Positions 11,000 through 33,601 of a stretch of 33,601 nt of DNA are shown piece after piece; position 1 is the stretch's first letter; every line of letters starts with the position of its first letter. A program made the position numbers and the translations under genes. Source of the DNA: a virus; IMG/VR virus record IMGVR_UViG_3300014720_000101, positions 1-33,601 of that record; one strand, given 5' to 3'. Below the pieces are notes generated by a model, which saw nothing but the letters and a program-made list of their open reading frames with translations, was not told where the DNA came from and did no database searches.

Positions 11000-12643
11000 T
11001 TAGACATCAACAGTTAGGACAAGATTAGGACAGCCCCAGATCTTCACAACGCCGTGCTGATCTGCTACTTGTTGCTCTGTTAGTCCTTGCTGTCTGTCAG
11101 CTCTGATCTTAAATCTATCAATTCTTACTCTTCCATCTGTCCACCAGAATCGATTGGGTGTCTGTGAAATGAGATCCCATCCAGCACTCAGGTAGCCCTT
11201 GCCTGTTCCCCATCTTGTGTCGACATAGGTCAAAAGTCCTACGAAACCCAGACTTCTTGCGTAGTCCTTTGCTGCTGCGGTGAGCTTGCTTAAGCCTCCG
11301 ACAATGTTCGTATCACACCTTGTGCTGTATCTTGCAATCTCTAATCGATTTGAGAATTTTTTGTGCAGAGGACGCCTAAGTGACATGCATGCCACAAGAT
11401 CGCCCAGTTCATTGATGAGGCCAAAGCACGCAGATGCCTTCACGTCACCATCGATGTGCGTCTCATTGAAGAATTTTTTTCTCTTCTGCGGATCAATGAC
11501 AACAGTCTTGCACTGTCTAGCGCCCATTGTTGATCTGCTGAGTCCTAACCTGTGTGCTATCATAGACTCACAAATGTCTCTTTTGTCCCGCCACTCGTCC
11601 TCAAATATGTGAATCAGATTGACACCGACTTCAGCACACAGTCTCGTCTTATTTGAGTGGTAATTTTTGCCCTTGAAGAGAGCACTGTGAAAATACAGCC
11701 CATTATACTCGATCGCAATCTTTTTAGGAGGGACATGAATGTCTAGCTCATAAGGACCGATGACAGACCTGTCGCAGACATATGTGGTTTCTCCCATTGA
11801 TCTAATAAATCTGTCAACTTCTATCTGCGCTCTAGAGCCGGCAGGAGAGCACGTAGAGCACCTGCCAGAGGAAGCCTCAATGAGACTTTTGATCTGAATG
11901 CTGTCGCACTGAACGCACTTAAACTTTAGGTTCTTAGTTCGATCCCTCACGTACTCATCCGGATCGCTTATAAGAACTAGTGATCCCTCAGCTGCAGACA
12001 ACCGATTTAGGACCTCTTCGTGCGAAAGTCTCTTAAGCGCGTCCAGTCGATCTCGAACATCACGACTCCTCATTGTCCGAGCTACCGACTGACTCATCAT
12101 GAGCACTCTCTCGTCCGACTCCTTAGTGAGGCCCTTCGCCCATGGTGAGTAGGATCCATCCTCATATCCCTCTATTAGCCGCTGTCGCTGGTCTGCCACT
12201 GATTTTGAAGTCTCGTGCGTAAGACCTTTATTCCACTGAGACCTCTCACCCGAGGCGAACTGAGCTGATACTGTCTCGCTCCTCGTCGCCGCCGCACGTC
12301 GCAGTGCATCCGATCCCTCCTTAGTAAGACCACGGGACCATCCCACTCTTCCCACGAGTTTTACCCTACGGGACTCAATAATCCGCTTTGCAGTATCCTC
12401 ATCGTGCACTGCGTATACTTTCCCGTTGTGGCCTGTGATGAATCGAGAATATCCCTTGCGCCACCCATAGAAAACTGTCTTCCGGCCGCATCCGCACTCA
12501 CACTCTGGTCGAACTCCGCTGAGAGTGAGTCGCACATACGCGTCCTCGATATCTTTGAATCCGTGAGATGTGAGGTGATCCTCAAACGGAGATGATCGGC
12601 CCGATGACCACTGGCAGACAGGACACACAAATCTCTTTCCCAT
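11000..12643 (-). CDS. Homing endonuclease 1: zinc finger, GLTKE repeats, Vsr/EDxHD-type nuclease, C-terminal GNAT-like domain
   Basis: A 547-residue free-standing homing endonuclease on the opposite strand to all neighbours. Residues 7-27 form a C2H2 finger (C7, C10, H23, H27), followed by CECGCG (48-53) and FITGHN (68-73). Three W-x-(R/K)-GLT-(K/H)-E repeats begin at W102, W137 and W168, probably DNA-binding elements. A CxxC...CxxC ribbon (243-265) leads into a nuclease core (about 270-351) with E275, YELDIHVPP (D301, H303), IAIEYNGLYFHS and LIHIFEDEW, typical of Vsr-like EDxHD enzymes of phages. The final 190 residues resemble a GNAT-type fold often joined to such nucleases. The ATG at 12643 is chosen because the finger begins there; an in-frame TTG lies at 12706. 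A good SD is not evident for either. Confidence 0.82.
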   Translation of the reverse strand: MGKRFVCPVCQWSSGRSSPFEDHLTSHGFKDIEDAYVRLTLSGVRPECECGCGRKTVFYGWRKGYSRFITGHNGKVYAVHDEDTAKRIIESRRVKLVGRVGWSRGLTKEGSDALRRAAATRSETVSAQFASGERSQWNKGLTHETSKSVADQRQRLIEGYEDGSYSPWAKGLTKESDERVLMMSQSVARTMRSRDVRDRLDALKRLSHEEVLNRLSAAEGSLVLISDPDEYVRDRTKNLKFKCVQCDSIQIKSLIEASSGRCSTCSPAGSRAQIEVDRFIRSMGETTYVCDRSVIGPYELDIHVPPKKIAIEYNGLYFHSALFKGKNYHSNKTRLCAEVGVNLIHIFEDEWRDKRDICESMIAHRLGLSRSTMGARQCKTVVIDPQKRKKFFNETHIDGDVKASACFGLINELGDLVACMSLRRPLHKKFSNRLEIARYSTRCDTNIVGGLSKLTAAAKDYARSLGFVGLLTYVDTRWGTGKGYLSAGWDLISQTPNRFWWTDGRVRIDRFKIRADRQQGLTEQQVADQHGVVKIWGCPNLVLTVDV

Positions 12644-12761
12644 AACCCTAATTATACTTCCACATTGTCCAATTACATCAAGCGCGCAGACTCCTGTGCA
12701 ATTCAATAATTAAAGTAGTGCCATCCAGATTGGGTGGAATTCTATAAATTAGGAGAAGAAA

Positions 12762-13322: not shown

Positions 13323-14234
13323 ATGCAATGTCCCAAGTGCGATTATCAGTCTGACAGCCTAAACTCCCTTAGAATCCACGCTGCGAAGCAGCACAAGTTT
13401 CCATCCGAGGAACTATACCTCTCTGTAGTGTCTGGAGGTGTGAGAGGCACGTGCAAGTGCGGGTGCGGAGAGCCCACAGCATTCATGTCCCTTCAGAAGG
13501 GCTACAATGACTATATCCAGGGCCATGCATCCCGAGTGAACAACAACTGGGGCCACAATGATGCTGCTTTCCAGAAAAGTCTAGATACGCGACGAAAAAT
13601 GTGGGAGCGCGGCGATATCAAGGGATGGTGCACTGGTTTAACTAAAGAGGATCCAAGAGTTGCTGCTATAATTCATAAGATGAACACGCCTGAAAGAGCA
13701 GAAAAGATCTCTAAGTCCCTGTCTGGAAAGAAAAAGTCCGACGACCATAAAAAGAAGATTTCAGAGAATATGTCTGCTTACTGGTCAAGTGAGGTAAATA
13801 GAAGCAAGCAGAGCTTTAGACAGGCAGAGTGCATTAGAAATGGCATGTTGACAAAAGCAACACGTGTGCATGGATTCTACGAAAATCCTAGAAAGTCTTC
13901 GAGTGCTGTTTATTATCGTTCTCTTTTTGAGCTGAATGCTGTACTTCATCTTGAGAAGGATGAAAATGTTGCATCATACAAATTTGAACCGTTTAGAATT
14001 GAGTACACGCACGAAGAAAAAGTGCGGCACTACGTAGTTGATTGTTTGGTCGAGTATCACGATGGAAGAAAAGTAATCATCGAATTCAAACCGAATTGTC
14101 ATATTGGAGACGCTAAGAATCAGGCAAAGTTTAATGCTGCATCCGCATATGCGATCAGTGAAGGAATGACTTTTGAAGTGTGGTCTGAGAAGACGCACCC
14201 GTTTCTCTCCTCATCCATCCGTGACACCCCGTGA
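13323..14234 (+). CDS. Homing endonuclease 2: zinc finger, NUMOD3-like, PD-(D/E)XK nuclease
   Basis: A 303-residue homing endonuclease. Residues 3-24 are a C2H2 finger (C3, C6, H19, H24), followed by CKCGCG (44-49) and GYNDYIQGH (60-68), the same N-terminal DNA-recognition module as in endonuclease 1. A GLTKE motif is at 105-109 and a NUMOD3-like segment, GKKKSDDHKKKISENM, at 135-150. The nuclease is a different type: YRSLFELNAV (E203), YVVDCLVEY (D240) and IIEFKP (E254-x-K256) give a PD-(D/E)XK core like that of TnsA-type enzymes. The C-terminal half uses A/T-ending codons, unlike the flanking tail genes, supporting acquisition by transfer. Expression is likely controlled by the hairpin just upstream. 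Confidence 0.82.
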   Translation: MQCPKCDYQSDSLNSLRIHAAKQHKFPSEELYLSVVSGGVRGTCKCGCGEPTAFMSLQKGYNDYIQGHASRVNNNWGHNDAAFQKSLDTRRKMWERGDIKGWCTGLTKEDPRVAAIIHKMNTPERAEKISKSLSGKKKSDDHKKKISENMSAYWSSEVNRSKQSFRQAECIRNGMLTKATRVHGFYENPRKSSSAVYYRSLFELNAVLHLEKDENVASYKFEPFRIEYTHEEKVRHYVVDCLVEYHDGRKVIIEFKPNCHIGDAKNQAKFNAASAYAISEGMTFEVWSEKTHPFLSSSIRDTP

Positions 14235-27895: not shown

Positions 27896-29101
27896 ATGAG
27901 AGTGTGTATAGACAGATCCACACTGGGCACGCCCATGACGCTTATCGTGAACGACGATGGAACATTTGAGTGGGGAAGCCCCGATGCCTGTGACGTGTGC
28001 CTCTTTTGCAGGGACGCGTGCGACGTGCCCCTTGAGGACCTGGCACAGATGAGCGGCGTTGATCTCTCGCACCTGACCCTGTCTCCACCTGCGCAGGCTG
28101 TCGCATTTAAGACCTTGGGCGTTGATCCCGTCTCTGTGCCGTGGCATCTCGCCCTCGGACGTGAGGAGTTCTCGAGGCGAATGCGGGACATATCCCAGAC
28201 GGTCCAGGGTGTATCCAGAGATCATCAACTGATGAAGTATGTCCAAACATATAGGCAGTGTCGAAAGTTCCTCAGAGGCCTCTCTAGGCATCCCGTCGAT
28301 CCCGGCACTGTTCGCCAGCTTATCGCGGACTGTGAAAGCGGTCTCTCTGTCATTAAGACGCTCAAGAGCTTTATGCCGGAGGAGGACGGTCTGGCACCCA
28401 GGGTGGTCTACAGTCAGACGTCGACAGCGACGGGAAGGCTCATCGTCGAGAGGGGACCGTCGATCCTGACGCTCCCAAAGGACCACAAGCGCCTCATCTC
28501 ACCCAGGCCGGGCAGCATCATCTGTGAGGTGGACTACGTGTCCCTAGAGCCTCGCCTTGTCCTGCTCCTCGGAGGTCGCGAAGCACCCGATGACATCTAC
28601 GAACACATGGGAAGGACGCTTTTTGGCGGCGAGATCACAAGAAAGTCCGCCAAGCTCGCCACTCTCAGCGCTCTATACGGCTCCTCTGAGGGTCTTGTCG
28701 CGTCCTTCACAGGTTCTGCGACTTCAGCCAGGACCGCAGTCAAGCGGGTGGCAGACTACTTTGGGGTCGAAGACCTGTCTAGAAAGCTGAGGTATGAGAT
28801 AAGTCAGGGACCTCTAAGAAATTTCTACGGACGCCCACTCCTGGAGGTCACAGGTTCCGACAGGGACGCGAAGCTCATCAATCACTACATTCAGTCATCC
28901 GCGGTCGACACAGCCCTACTGGGCTTCGCACAGCTGTCTGGAAGGGTAAAGGATCTGGGCGCATCACCTATTTATGTGATACACGACTCGGTCATCTTTG
29001 ACGTTCCCACATCTCGCAGCGAGGATTTCTTGCGGGAGTGCGATCGAGGAGTTGGTCTAGACGTGGGAAGATTTAACCTGAAGGCGAGCGTGCTGTCATG
29101 A
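27896..29101 (+). CDS. Minimal family A DNA polymerase-like protein
   Basis: A 401-residue protein with the palm-fingers core of family A polymerases. TGRL (179-182) is the fingers/palm entry motif. Motif A is VDYVSLEPR with D213 and the steric-gate type E218 (Pol I DYSQIELR). Motif B is RKSAKLATLSALYG with R249, K253 and Y261 (Pol I RRSAK...YG). Motif C is VIHDSVIFDV with D364, where the usual Glu after Asp is Ser. The Glu in motif A suggests DNA rather than RNA synthesis. There is no 3'-5' exonuclease domain, and the N-terminal 170 residues are too short for a normal thumb; they contain a cluster C32, C35, C38, C42 that could bind metal or Fe-S. Its role (repair, priming or replication) is unknown. 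It overlaps the next gene by ATGA. Confidence 0.8.
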   Translation: MRVCIDRSTLGTPMTLIVNDDGTFEWGSPDACDVCLFCRDACDVPLEDLAQMSGVDLSHLTLSPPAQAVAFKTLGVDPVSVPWHLALGREEFSRRMRDISQTVQGVSRDHQLMKYVQTYRQCRKFLRGLSRHPVDPGTVRQLIADCESGLSVIKTLKSFMPEEDGLAPRVVYSQTSTATGRLIVERGPSILTLPKDHKRLISPRPGSIICEVDYVSLEPRLVLLLGGREAPDDIYEHMGRTLFGGEITRKSAKLATLSALYGSSEGLVASFTGSATSARTAVKRVADYFGVEDLSRKLRYEISQGPLRNFYGRPLLEVTGSDRDAKLINHYIQSSAVDTALLGFAQLSGRVKDLGASPIYVIHDSVIFDVPTSRSEDFLRECDRGVGLDVGRFNLKASVLS

Positions 29102-31807: not shown

Positions 31808-32491
31808 ATGGCAAAAAACACAGAGCAGGACAGCTTCACAGACGATCTAATCAAGTCACTCAACAAGTCACACGGTTCCCGTGTCGCTTACAACCTGGCC
31901 TTCGATGAGTCACCCACTCACGTGAAGCGCTGGATCAGCACGGGGTCCAAGCAGCTCGACTACATCATCTCCAACCGCAGGTCGGGCGGCCTTCCCGAGG
32001 GGCGCATCGTCGAGATCTTCGGCCCTCCGTCGATCGGTAAGTCGCACATTGCCATCCAGATCGCGCGCTCCACCCAGAAGATGGGCGGAATCGTGGTCTA
32101 CATCGACACGGAGAACGCCACCTCGGTCGAGAACCTGGGCCTGCTCGGCGTCGACGTCAAGAAACGCTTCGTCTACGTGGACACCCACTGCACTGAGGAG
32201 GTCCTCTCCATCGCGGAGGAGACCGTCCTGAAGGCGAAGGCGATGGACAAGGACGTGCCCGTCACCATCATCTGGGACTCGGTGGCAGCAACCTCGCCGA
32301 AGGCGGAGCTCACCGGTGACTACGACAAGGACTCGATCGGCCTCCAGGCCCGCGCGATCTCCAAGGGCATGCGCAAGATCACAGGCGTCATCGCCAACCA
32401 GAACGTGCTGCTCATCTGCTTGAACCAGATCCGCACGAAGATTGGATGCGTCGGTCCTGACACCGAGGTTTCTGTAAGAAAAGTGTCATGA
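31808..32491 (+). CDS. uvsX: UvsX/RecA-like recombinase, N-terminal part fused to a very short N-intein
   Basis: The first 213 residues are a RecA/UvsX recombinase: Walker A GPPSIGKS (72-79), VVYIDTENA, Walker B VTIIWDS (152-158), and LLICLNQIRTKIG ending at residue 213, where the DNA-binding L2/MFG region of RecA should follow. Instead the frame continues C214-VGPDTEVSVRKVS and stops. CVGPDTEV is a typical intein block A with the catalytic first Cys, so this is an N-extein plus 14-residue N-intein. GAGG at 31799-31802 serves the ATG. The enzyme core is C/G-rich in third positions. On its own the product lacks the rest of the ATPase core; the remainder is expected from the gene at 33348 by trans-splicing. 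Confidence 0.85.
   Translation: MAKNTEQDSFTDDLIKSLNKSHGSRVAYNLAFDESPTHVKRWISTGSKQLDYIISNRRSGGLPEGRIVEIFGPPSIGKSHIAIQIARSTQKMGGIVVYIDTENATSVENLGLLGVDVKKRFVYVDTHCTEEVLSIAEETVLKAKAMDKDVPVTIIWDSVAATSPKAELTGDYDKDSIGLQARAISKGMRKITGVIANQNVLLICLNQIRTKIGCVGPDTEVSVRKVS
32447..32488 (+). other. Putative split N-intein (block A only, 14 codons)
   Basis: Codons 214-227 of the recombinase frame read CVGPDTEVSVRKVS and lie exactly after the conserved RTKIG. Cys1 and the G-x-D-T-x-V pattern fit intein block A. Block B is absent here but found in the downstream frame (33348 onward), so the split lies between blocks A and B, as in atypical split inteins such as AceL-TerL. Confidence 0.75.
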
Positions 32492-32494
32492 AGT

Positions 32495-32543
32495 TTTCAA
32501 TCAACCTCTGACAAAGTATATTTATTGTCGAGATTGATTGAAA
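32495..32543 (+). promoter_or_regulatory. Hairpin over the start of homing endonuclease 3 with AT-rich loop
   Basis: The perfect 10-bp inverted repeat TTTCAATCAA (32495-32504) / TTGATTGAAA (32534-32543) includes the first base of the ATG at 32543. Inside it GACAA (32510-32514) pairs with TTGTC (32525-32529), with a few more pairs between (TCT/AGA), leaving the loop AGTATATTTA. The structure would block initiation on read-through mRNA from uvsX. The loop contains TATATTTA, similar to a T4-type late promoter, repeating the design seen before endonuclease 2. Confidence 0.6.
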
Positions 32544-33388
32544 TGCCACCTGGGATATATCCGAGAAAAGGTCACTCCGAAGCCACAAAACTGAAGATCG
32601 CCGCCGGAAATACTGGCAAGGTCTTTTCGAGCGAAAGAAAAGAAGCAATATCGAAAGCTAACAAAAAGAAATTAGCACCAGATGTTGTCGATCGTGCTAA
32701 AAAACTTCTTTCAGAAAAGTGCTGTTCTTTCGACGCCGCTATCAAGCATCTAGGCCTTAAGCCCACGAAGGCGTTGAGACGGGCTTTGATCGACCAGGGA
32801 GTCGACGTATGCGACGATCTCAAGTTCTTCAATTGGAGCATTGACTACTCAACGGGCAAGAAACTTCTTTCGTATTTGAAACTGAACGTTCATTGGCGTG
32901 AGATACGAGAAAGAACGGGCCTCACACAAAAGCAAATACATGGAGCAAGACTCAAGCTTGAGAAAGCTCACAATTTTGTCTACTCACCCGAAAGAAAAAA
33001 GCCAGGTGGGTACGCCAAGTCAAAGATAGAGCTTCAGGTGCAAGCGATGCTAGATGAGCTAGGAGTAGAATACGAGTCGGAGTTTCCACATGACGCCTTC
33101 TTCTATGACTTTCGGGTAAAGCGTACGTCGCTTCTCATAGAAGTGAATGGTGACTATTGGCATGCAAATCCCAGTGTGTATCCTGACAAGGGAGCTCTAA
33201 ATGAAACACAAAGAAAGATGGTCAGAAGAGATCATTACAAGAGAAGAGTCGCCAAAGATCACGGATATTATGTTTTGTATCTTTGGGAATCTGATTTGAA
33301 AAGCCAGCCAGAAGCAGTTAGAATTACTCTAGAGAGGTACATCAAAAATGCATTCGAAAAAGCAGAAGCTCTCAAGCTTCTTCAGTGA
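32543..33388 (+). CDS. Homing endonuclease 3, Vsr-like EDxHD family, inside the fractured uvsX
   Basis: A 281-residue free-standing homing endonuclease placed between the two halves of the recombinase. The N-terminus has NUMOD3-type repeats: KGHSEATKLKIAAGNTGK (9-26) and SSERKEAISKANKKK (29-43). A helical DNA-recognition part follows, with a segment like a helix-turn-helix (HWREIRERTGLTQKQIHGAR). The nuclease core is SKIELQVQAML (E163), FFYDFRVK (D189), LLIEVNGDYWHANP (E200, H207) and VAKDHGYYVLYLWESDL, matching Vsr-like EDxHD enzymes found in fractured phage genes. The ATG at 32543 is chosen; an in-frame TTG lies at 32525. Its 3' end overlaps the next frame by 41 bases. It probably cuts uninterrupted uvsX alleles. 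Confidence 0.85.
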   Translation: MPPGIYPRKGHSEATKLKIAAGNTGKVFSSERKEAISKANKKKLAPDVVDRAKKLLSEKCCSFDAAIKHLGLKPTKALRRALIDQGVDVCDDLKFFNWSIDYSTGKKLLSYLKLNVHWREIRERTGLTQKQIHGARLKLEKAHNFVYSPERKKPGGYAKSKIELQVQAMLDELGVEYESEFPHDAFFYDFRVKRTSLLIEVNGDYWHANPSVYPDKGALNETQRKMVRRDHYKRRVAKDHGYYVLYLWESDLKSQPEAVRITLERYIKNAFEKAEALKLLQ

Positions 33389-33601
33389 AGCCGGATTCGA
33401 TTACAAGTCGATGGAGGTAGGCAGGTTCTACCCCTTGAATGAAAATTGGGAAATTCTAACGCGCGATTCTAGCGGCCGAGACGCTTGGTGTAGAGTGACT
33501 CACCTGGTCAGAAAAGAAGCAACCGTGCCAATCGTTGTCCAGTACATGGACACGCAACTCTTCGTAAGCCCAGAGCACAAGTTTTTTGCGAGAGTAAGCG
33601 G
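33348..33601 (+). CDS. uvsX: C-terminal intein fragment expected to carry the rest of UvsX (3' truncated by window edge)
   Basis: A frame different from the endonuclease opens at the ATG at 33348, with AGAGG at 33333-33337 (10-base spacing), and runs off the window after 84 codons. It encodes MHSKKQKLSSFFSEAGFDYK, then FYPLNENWEILTRD, CRVTHLVRKEATVPIVVQYM and LFVSPEHKFFARV. The last segment, S74-P-E-H77-K, fits intein block B ('T/S-x-x-H'), so this is the body of the intein whose block A ends the upstream recombinase fragment. The C-terminal intein blocks and the C-extein (rest of the recombinase) must lie beyond the window. If the insertion were simply destructive, an independent RBS and intact start would not be expected. 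Confidence 0.75.
   Translation, partial: MHSKKQKLSSFFSEAGFDYKSMEVGRFYPLNENWEILTRDSSGRDAWCRVTHLVRKEATVPIVVQYMDTQLFVSPEHKFFARVS

What the first reader, a model, noticed from the sequence alone, without database searches (positions are those of the whole stretch)
32447..32491. N-intein of only 14 residues ending in a natural stop
The intein fragment attached to the recombinase is CVGPDTEVSVRKVS, then TGA. Known natural N-inteins are mostly about 90-120 residues, with atypical ones near 25. If functional, this one supplies only the nucleophile strand, and all other catalytic elements including block B come from the partner. The stop TGA overlaps an ATG (ATGA at 32489) that opens only a 7-codon frame, so there is no hidden extension in that direction.
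Basis: partly seen in the sequence, partly recalled or inferred. Interest (0 to 1): 0.8.

Follow-up and report, generated by a model that had tools for sequence, protein, structure and literature searches.

The report
Fourteen-residue N-intein in phage recombinase
A phage DNA-recombination gene (uvsX) is cut in two by a naturally split intein whose first piece is only 14 amino acids long, one fewer than the shortest natural piece described as characterised, and related phages keep the same short piece, so it looks like a real working part rather than a broken gene.

Summary
uvsX (31808-32491) ends ...NQIRTKIG|CVGPDTEVSVRKVS-TGA. Downstream lie an EDxHD-type homing endonuclease gene (32543-33388) and the start of the C-intein gene (33348-33601, cut by the contig end). 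A second phage contig (L083) carries the same 14 residues plus the complete C-intein (144 aa, block B SPEH, ending SHN) and then TMYGDPTTTPGG, the missing half of UvsX. The module is 96-100% identical in DNA between the two phages while uvsX just upstream is 82-91% identical: it moved as a unit. At this uvsX/recA site I found at least ten further split inteins, all split at the same turn (13-18 residues; 14 is commonest), and contiguous mini-inteins at the identical site. A contiguous relative (L115) folds confidently as an intein; the split falls just after its first long beta-strand. No contig examined carries a second recA, so active UvsX must come from the halves. The kind is known: atypically split inteins in fractured phage genes (VidaL 16 aa, PolB16 OarG 15 aa). 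New: natural N-inteins of 14 and 13 residues, in a family mixing split and contiguous forms. Trans-splicing is inferred, not shown.

The parts
31808..32446 (+). UvsX/RecA-family recombinase, N-terminal part (N-extein), ending ...LNQIRTKIG just before the insertion point
   Evidence: PF00154 E 1.8e-41, profile positions 7-199 of 262; uninterrupted relatives continue RTKIG|VMYGDPTTTPGG
32447..32488 (+). N-intein, 14 residues CVGPDTEVSVRKVS: Cys1 and block A only
   Evidence: translation; identical peptide in L083; recurs as 14 residues in L086/L106, L108, L090, L113/L124, L123/L128
32489..32491 (+). stop codon TGA of the N-terminal half (overlaps an ATG at 32488 that opens only 7 codons)
   Evidence: homologous loci use TGA, TAA and TAG here
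32543..33388 (+). homing endonuclease of the EDxHD (Vsr-like) kind, 281 aa, between the two halves (ORF can also start at TTG 32525)
   Evidence: Foldseek match of the model to I-Bth0305I catalytic domain 3r3p (E 3.5e-4, TMt 0.87) and Vsr 1cw0; conserved E163, D189, E200, H207, D230 in 9 homologues; dN/dS 0.09 against L083
33332..33337 (+). possible ribosome-binding site GAGAGG for the C-intein gene
   Evidence: sequence upstream of ATG 33348; inference
33348..33601 (+). start of the C-intein gene (84 residues held, through block B ...FVSPEHKFFARVS); overlaps the endonuclease gene by 41 bases; runs off the contig end
   Evidence: 84/84 identical to L083, where the frame goes on to ...SYYSNGVLSHN|TMYGDPTTTPGG; an overlap with the endonuclease gene of 17-41 bases is kept in L083, L007, L086, L008, L124, L127 and L128, 4 bases in L126

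Best explanation
This is an atypically split (S1-type) class 1 intein in a 'fractured' phage uvsX gene. The first gene makes the N-terminal part of UvsX ending in a 14-residue N-intein (Cys1 and one beta-strand). The third gene makes a C-intein of about 144 residues fused to the C-terminal part of UvsX. Most likely the 14-residue tail docks into the nearly complete C-intein, completes the HINT fold and splices in trans by the usual Cys1 thioester, Thr+1 and terminal Asn steps, giving one UvsX chain with the junction KIG-TMYGDP. The endonuclease between them most likely cuts uvsX genes that lack the insert, so that the whole module is copied in. Shown: anatomy, conservation, purifying selection on the endonuclease, a DNA identity step that fits movement of the module as a unit, intein fold of a contiguous relative, absence of another recA on the contigs. 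Inferred: docking, trans-splicing, endonuclease target.
For: Same architecture in L083 with the full C-intein and the missing UvsX half. Module DNA 96-100% identical against 82-91% in uvsX just upstream; dS 0.147 in the endonuclease against 0.616 in uvsX, dN/dS 0.09 and 0.07. At least ten further distinct split inteins at the site, N-parts of 13-18 residues, none split elsewhere, including a scan on the C-side junction that did not use the N-intein sequence. C-intein invariant residues across 15 copies: S84, P85, H87 (block B), D137, Y146, L152-S153-H154-N155. Synonymous sites saturated between C-inteins while dN is 0.24-0.39. Contiguous relative L115 at the same site: mean pLDDT 95.8, strands 7-11 and 15-19 with the split falling between them; matches solved inteins including VidaL, Z 17.4. 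Only the two separate halves of recA/uvsX on eight contigs up to 161 kb. The split persists where the endonuclease is lost (L002, L110) or reduced to a 75-codon remnant (L090, L131).
Against: No splicing has been measured. The window's own C-intein is cut just after block B, so its splice junction is inferred from L083. The contigs are metagenomic and none is shown to be a complete genome, so an intact recA elsewhere cannot be excluded.
Confidence: 0.88

Rival explanations
1. The intein no longer splices: the two UvsX halves associate as separate chains, as described for split NrdA of phage Aeh1, and the intein remnants are passive tails.
For: Some endonuclease-split phage genes work as two chains without ligation (PMC2988022). 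No splicing data exist here.
Against: Cys1, block B SP-H, D137 and the SHN terminus are invariant in copies whose synonymous sites are saturated. The C-extein residue after the junction is Thr in every complete locus, whereas uninterrupted relatives have Val there, as expected if a +1 nucleophile is required.
Confidence: 0.08
2. A pseudogene or a sequencing or assembly error: a broken intein that truncates uvsX.
For: The C-terminal half lies partly outside the window; contiguous inteins exist in relatives.
Against: Identical peptide and stop in an independent contig whose uvsX differs at dS 0.62; recurrence of 14-residue forms in five other distinct loci; dN/dS 0.09 in the endonuclease.
Confidence: 0.02
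3. The halves are joined before or during translation: stop read-through, frameshift, or an RNA intron.
For: In the window and L083 the N-intein and the endonuclease are in the same frame, so read-through would fuse them.
Against: The frame relation is not conserved (frame 0 in window, L007, L008, L124, L128; frame 1 in L086, L108; frame 2 in L126, L127) and all three stop codons occur. No Rfam family reaches its gathering score in the window, L007 or L083, and the only hit in the N-intein region is a chance-level animal microRNA family. Genes of the window end in all three stops as in the standard code.
Confidence: 0.02

Closest known systems
VidaL split intein (PDB 6vgv, 6vgw; N-intein 16 aa)
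   Same: Natural, Cys1-dependent, atypical split with a very short N-part at the S1 position after beta-strand 2 (PMC13014065); same fold (Z 17.4, 132 residues aligned)
   Different: 19% identity in the structural alignment; profile E-value only 0.0056; N-intein two residues longer. Its host gene could not be checked here; from memory it comes from a Lake Vida metagenome.
PolB16 OarG split intein (N-intein 15 aa, 8CPN/8CPO)
   Same: Natural S1-type split with a very short N-part, reported in 2023 as the shortest characterised (PMC10189870)
   Different: Ser1/Ser+1, host gene a B-family polymerase; here Cys1/Thr+1, uvsX, N-part one residue shorter
AceL-TerL and GOS-TerL split inteins (N-inteins 25 and 37 aa)
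   Same: Natural atypical split with a short N-part (PMC11766414)
   Different: Split after helix 1 (S2) rather than after beta-strand 2 (PMC13014065); terL host gene
Fractured phage genes with gp41-1, gp41-8, NrdJ-1, IMPDH-1 split inteins (Dassa et al. 2009, from memory; paper not held)
   Same: Endonuclease gene between two gene halves that carry the intein parts; profile of this family matches gp41-1 (6qaz, E 2.3e-8)
   Different: Those have the canonical split with a long N-part
I-Bth0305I and Vsr endonuclease (EDxHD)
   Same: Catalytic fold and E, D, H, D residues
   Different: I-Bth0305I is described among group I intron endonucleases (PMC3943268); here the gene sits between intein halves

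Membership tests
Class 1 intein | Cys or Ser at position 1 directly after the N-extein | tested here: met
   KIG|C at 32447; uninterrupted relatives read KIG|VMYGDP
Class 1 intein | Block B histidine, penultimate His, terminal Asn, nucleophile at +1 | tested here: met
   SPEH, SHN and Thr+1 in L083; SP-H, SHN and Thr+1 in the other complete copies; in the window only block B is present, the rest is beyond the contig end
Class 1 intein | HINT fold | tested here: met
   Model of contiguous relative L115 (54-69% identical to the C-inteins of L083, L007, L002, L086): pLDDT 95.8; 82 solved chains at Z 8 or more, those listed being inteins or intein-like (hedgehog, BIL) domains
Atypically split (S1) intein | Split just after beta-strand 2, N-part about 15-20 residues | tested here: met
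   Split falls between strands 7-11 and 15-19 of the L115 model; N-part 14
Atypically split (S1) intein | Protein trans-splicing activity | not testable with these tools
   needs expression of both halves
Fractured gene with split intein | Host gene in two parts at a conserved site with an endonuclease gene between | tested here: met
   same order in L007, L086, L008, L124, L126, L127, L128
EDxHD homing endonuclease | Vsr-like catalytic fold with E, D, H, D residues | tested here: met
   3r3p TMt 0.87; invariant E163, D189, E200, H207, D230
EDxHD homing endonuclease | Site-specific cleavage of the insert-free allele and homing | tested here: inconclusive
   sharp identity step at the insertion point between window and L083 fits homing; cleavage not tested
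Group I intron | Catalytic RNA structure around the break | tested here: not met
   no Rfam match at gathering score in the window, and no group I hit in 32400-32640 at E up to 1
VidaL lineage | Close sequence relationship to VidaL | tested here: inconclusive
   no phmmer hit to VidaL; profile E 0.0056; 19% identity by structure

The most novel reading that the evidence does not exclude
The recA/uvsX site hosts an intein lineage that has switched between contiguous and S1-split forms at least two to three times, always breaking at the same turn, mostly with an EDxHD endonuclease gene at the break; its N-parts of 13-14 residues are the smallest natural functional N-inteins.
Probability: 0.5. 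Interest if true: 0.6.

Novelty: new member of a known kind. Interest (0 to 1): 0.45.

Why it matters
Very short natural N-inteins can be made by peptide synthesis and are sought for protein labelling; 13- and 14-residue natural ones, with partner C-inteins of known sequence, extend that set below the published 15. The close contiguous relatives at the same site, together with endonuclease remnants, give a direct way to test how split inteins arise and why the split outlives the endonuclease.

Tried and rejected
Close relatives of the C-intein in 50,697 annotated phage records: none. Phmmer of the L083 C-intein against solved structures gave only chance hits; a 15-sequence profile was needed to reach known inteins with confidence. 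Pfam and NCBIfam do not recognise the 84-residue window piece. Stop read-through as a mechanism: frames and stop codons vary. Group I intron in the window: none, although one exists in L002. The C-side junction pattern in 84,980 bacterial and archaeal genomes: 16 matches, none an intein on inspection, so the family was seen only in viral contigs. Papers on VidaL (Burton 2020), fractured genes (Dassa 2009) and GOS-TerL (2015) were not held, so their sequences could not be compared directly; a text search for the VidaL host gene found nothing. Direction of the contiguous/split changes: trees too weakly supported.

Full report
OBSERVATION. The recombinase ORF 31808-32491 ends ...LLICLNQIRTKIG CVGPDTEVSVRKVS TGA, exactly as described. 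It belongs to the RecA family (PF00154, E 1.8e-41, matching profile positions 7-199 of 262), so the C-terminal part is missing. Neither other reading frame after the stop gives an intein-like continuation; the ATG that overlaps the stop opens seven codons and starts at 32488, not 32489.

SURROUNDINGS. The window is a whole 33,601-base viral record and ends 1.1 kb after the stop. In that stretch lie an endonuclease gene (ATG 32543 or TTG 32525, to 33388) and, overlapping it by 41 bases, a frame from ATG 33348 that runs off the contig end. The 84 residues of that frame match nothing in Pfam or NCBIfam, but are 84/84 identical to a frame in another contig, L083 (IMGVR_UViG_3300013131_000209).

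THE COMPLETE LOCUS. In L083 the order is UvsX-N, the same 14 residues and stop, the endonuclease (97% identical), then a frame of 326 residues: a 144-residue C-intein ending SYYSNGVLSHN, followed by TMYGDPTTTPGGSAIPFHASVRIKL..., the missing part of UvsX. Uninterrupted relatives read RTKIG|VMYGDPTTTPGG, so the insert lies between Gly and Val/Thr; the interrupted versions carry Thr, a possible +1 nucleophile, where the uninterrupted ones carry Val.

MOVEMENT AS A UNIT. Between window and L083 the DNA identity is 85-91% through uvsX and 82% in its last 60 bases, then 97.8% in the N-intein, 98% in the spacer, 96% in the endonuclease and 99.6% in the C-intein piece. Endonuclease dS is 0.147 and dN/dS 0.09; uvsX dS is 0.616 and dN/dS 0.07. 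The step at the insertion point is what homing of the module would leave. The far side of the module cannot be compared, because the window ends inside it.

THE FAMILY. Six of the 80 loci fetched with UvsX alone carry an insert at this site; they represent three distinct split inteins, with N-parts of 15, 16 and 18 residues. A DNA pattern for K[IV]G-CVxP[DE]T found more. Because that pattern fixes part of the N-intein, I ran a second scan on the C-side junction HN|T[M/I][Y/F]G[D/N]P, which does not use the N-intein: it returned 26 viral loci, and all of them read as inteins at this site. Distinct split forms: 13 residues (L126, L127), 14 (window/L083, L086, L090, L108, L113/L124, L123/L128), 15 (L002, L110, L131), 16 (L007, L130), 18 (L008 group). 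No split lies anywhere else in the intein. Contiguous mini-inteins occupy the same site in L091/L097/L118, L092, L096, L101/L104, L115, L132 and L135. L115, CVSPETMVTVRKSD-AKKQKISKFF..., is closely related to the window's intein and shows that 14 residues plus the C-part leave nothing out.

STRUCTURE. AlphaFold2 on the L115 intein, with 14 relatives in the alignment, gives mean pLDDT 95.8: strands at 7-11 and 15-19, then helix 20-26. The split therefore falls in the turn after the first long strand, the position that PMC13014065 calls S1 and assigns to VidaL and PolB16. Solved inteins head the match list; VidaL (6vgv) scores Z 17.4 at 19% identity. A sequence profile of the family reaches gp41-1 at E 2.3e-8 and VidaL at 0.0056. 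Invariant residues include block B S-P-x-H, D137 and S-H-N at the end.

FUNCTION OR WRECK. The synonymous sites of the C-inteins are saturated between copies whose dN is 0.24-0.39, which fits purifying selection. Eight contigs with the split gene, up to 161 kb, contain the two recA/uvsX halves and no other copy, though none is known to be complete. In L002 and L110 no endonuclease lies between the halves, and in L090 and L131 only about 75 codons of its C-terminal end remain, yet both intein parts are kept. In L110 the last N-intein codons (GGA GGT) form a strong ribosome-binding site for the C-intein ATG, which follows the stop after three bases. These are the marks of a split that is itself maintained. 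I found no support for recoding: stops and frames vary.

ENDONUCLEASE. Sequence matches are weak (MTES_1575 E 1e-4, Vsr E 3e-4), but the predicted C-terminal domain matches I-Bth0305I (3r3p, TMt 0.87) and Vsr (1cw0), and E163, D189, E200, H207 and D230 are invariant among nine homologues. That is the EDxHD family described in PMC3943268.

EVOLUTION. In a tree of 20 inteins split and contiguous forms are interleaved; well supported branches force at least three changes between the states (two when four divergent rows are left out), but their direction is unresolved.

COMPARISON. Atypically split natural inteins with N-parts of 15-35 residues are known (PMC13014065); PolB16 OarG at 15 was called the shortest characterised in 2023 (PMC10189870), VidaL has 16. 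The present one is a member of that kind, one residue shorter, and L126/L127 are two shorter. Whether shorter uncharacterised ones are already listed in intein collections could not be checked.

LIMITS. No activity was measured; the window's own C-terminal junction is beyond the contig end; all relatives used are metagenomic.

Noticed in passing
L002:1433-2529: The same uvsX gene, already broken by a 15-residue split intein without endonuclease, is broken again at TTPGG|MAIPFH by a group I intron (RF00028, 41.6 bits, below the 50-bit gathering score, E 6e-9) that carries its own endonuclease ORF.
   Followed up: partly
L008:504-4800 (also L009, L010, L102, L114, L122, L129): uvsX in four pieces: an 18-residue split intein, a second split intein at GDPT|C (N-part CVDLDTEIEVEFDESSMFNKKYFNKNFK, C-part ending NHN|TTPGG), and a third break whose 5' flank resembles the L002 group I intron, with two endonuclease ORFs.
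   Followed up: partly
L092 (reverse strand), second site GDPS|C: A contiguous intein at the first uvsX site is followed by a second, split intein with a 15-residue N-part CVSPDTKIKVRRRNV, an endonuclease, and a C-part ending NHN|TTPGG.
   Followed up: no
L110:954-1004: The last N-intein codons double as the ribosome-binding site of the C-intein gene (CAACAAGGAGGTAAC TAA ACT ATG): the smallest gap between the halves seen, with no endonuclease.
   Followed up: partly
L085:2372-4400: A replicative-helicase-like gene is split at GVGK|CSVGDTYIKIKY... with a C-part ending SHN|SHFLVALG, apparently another split intein in the same phage group.
   Followed up: no
11000-12706 (-) and 13323-14234 (+): Two further endonuclease-like genes lie among the tail genes (PHROG homing endonuclease 3339, E 4e-72; TnsA-like N-terminal domain PF08722, E 2e-13).
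   Followed up: partly
27896-29101 (+): A 401-residue ORF matches only the C-terminal part of family A DNA polymerase; whether the rest of the polymerase is elsewhere was not examined.
   Followed up: no
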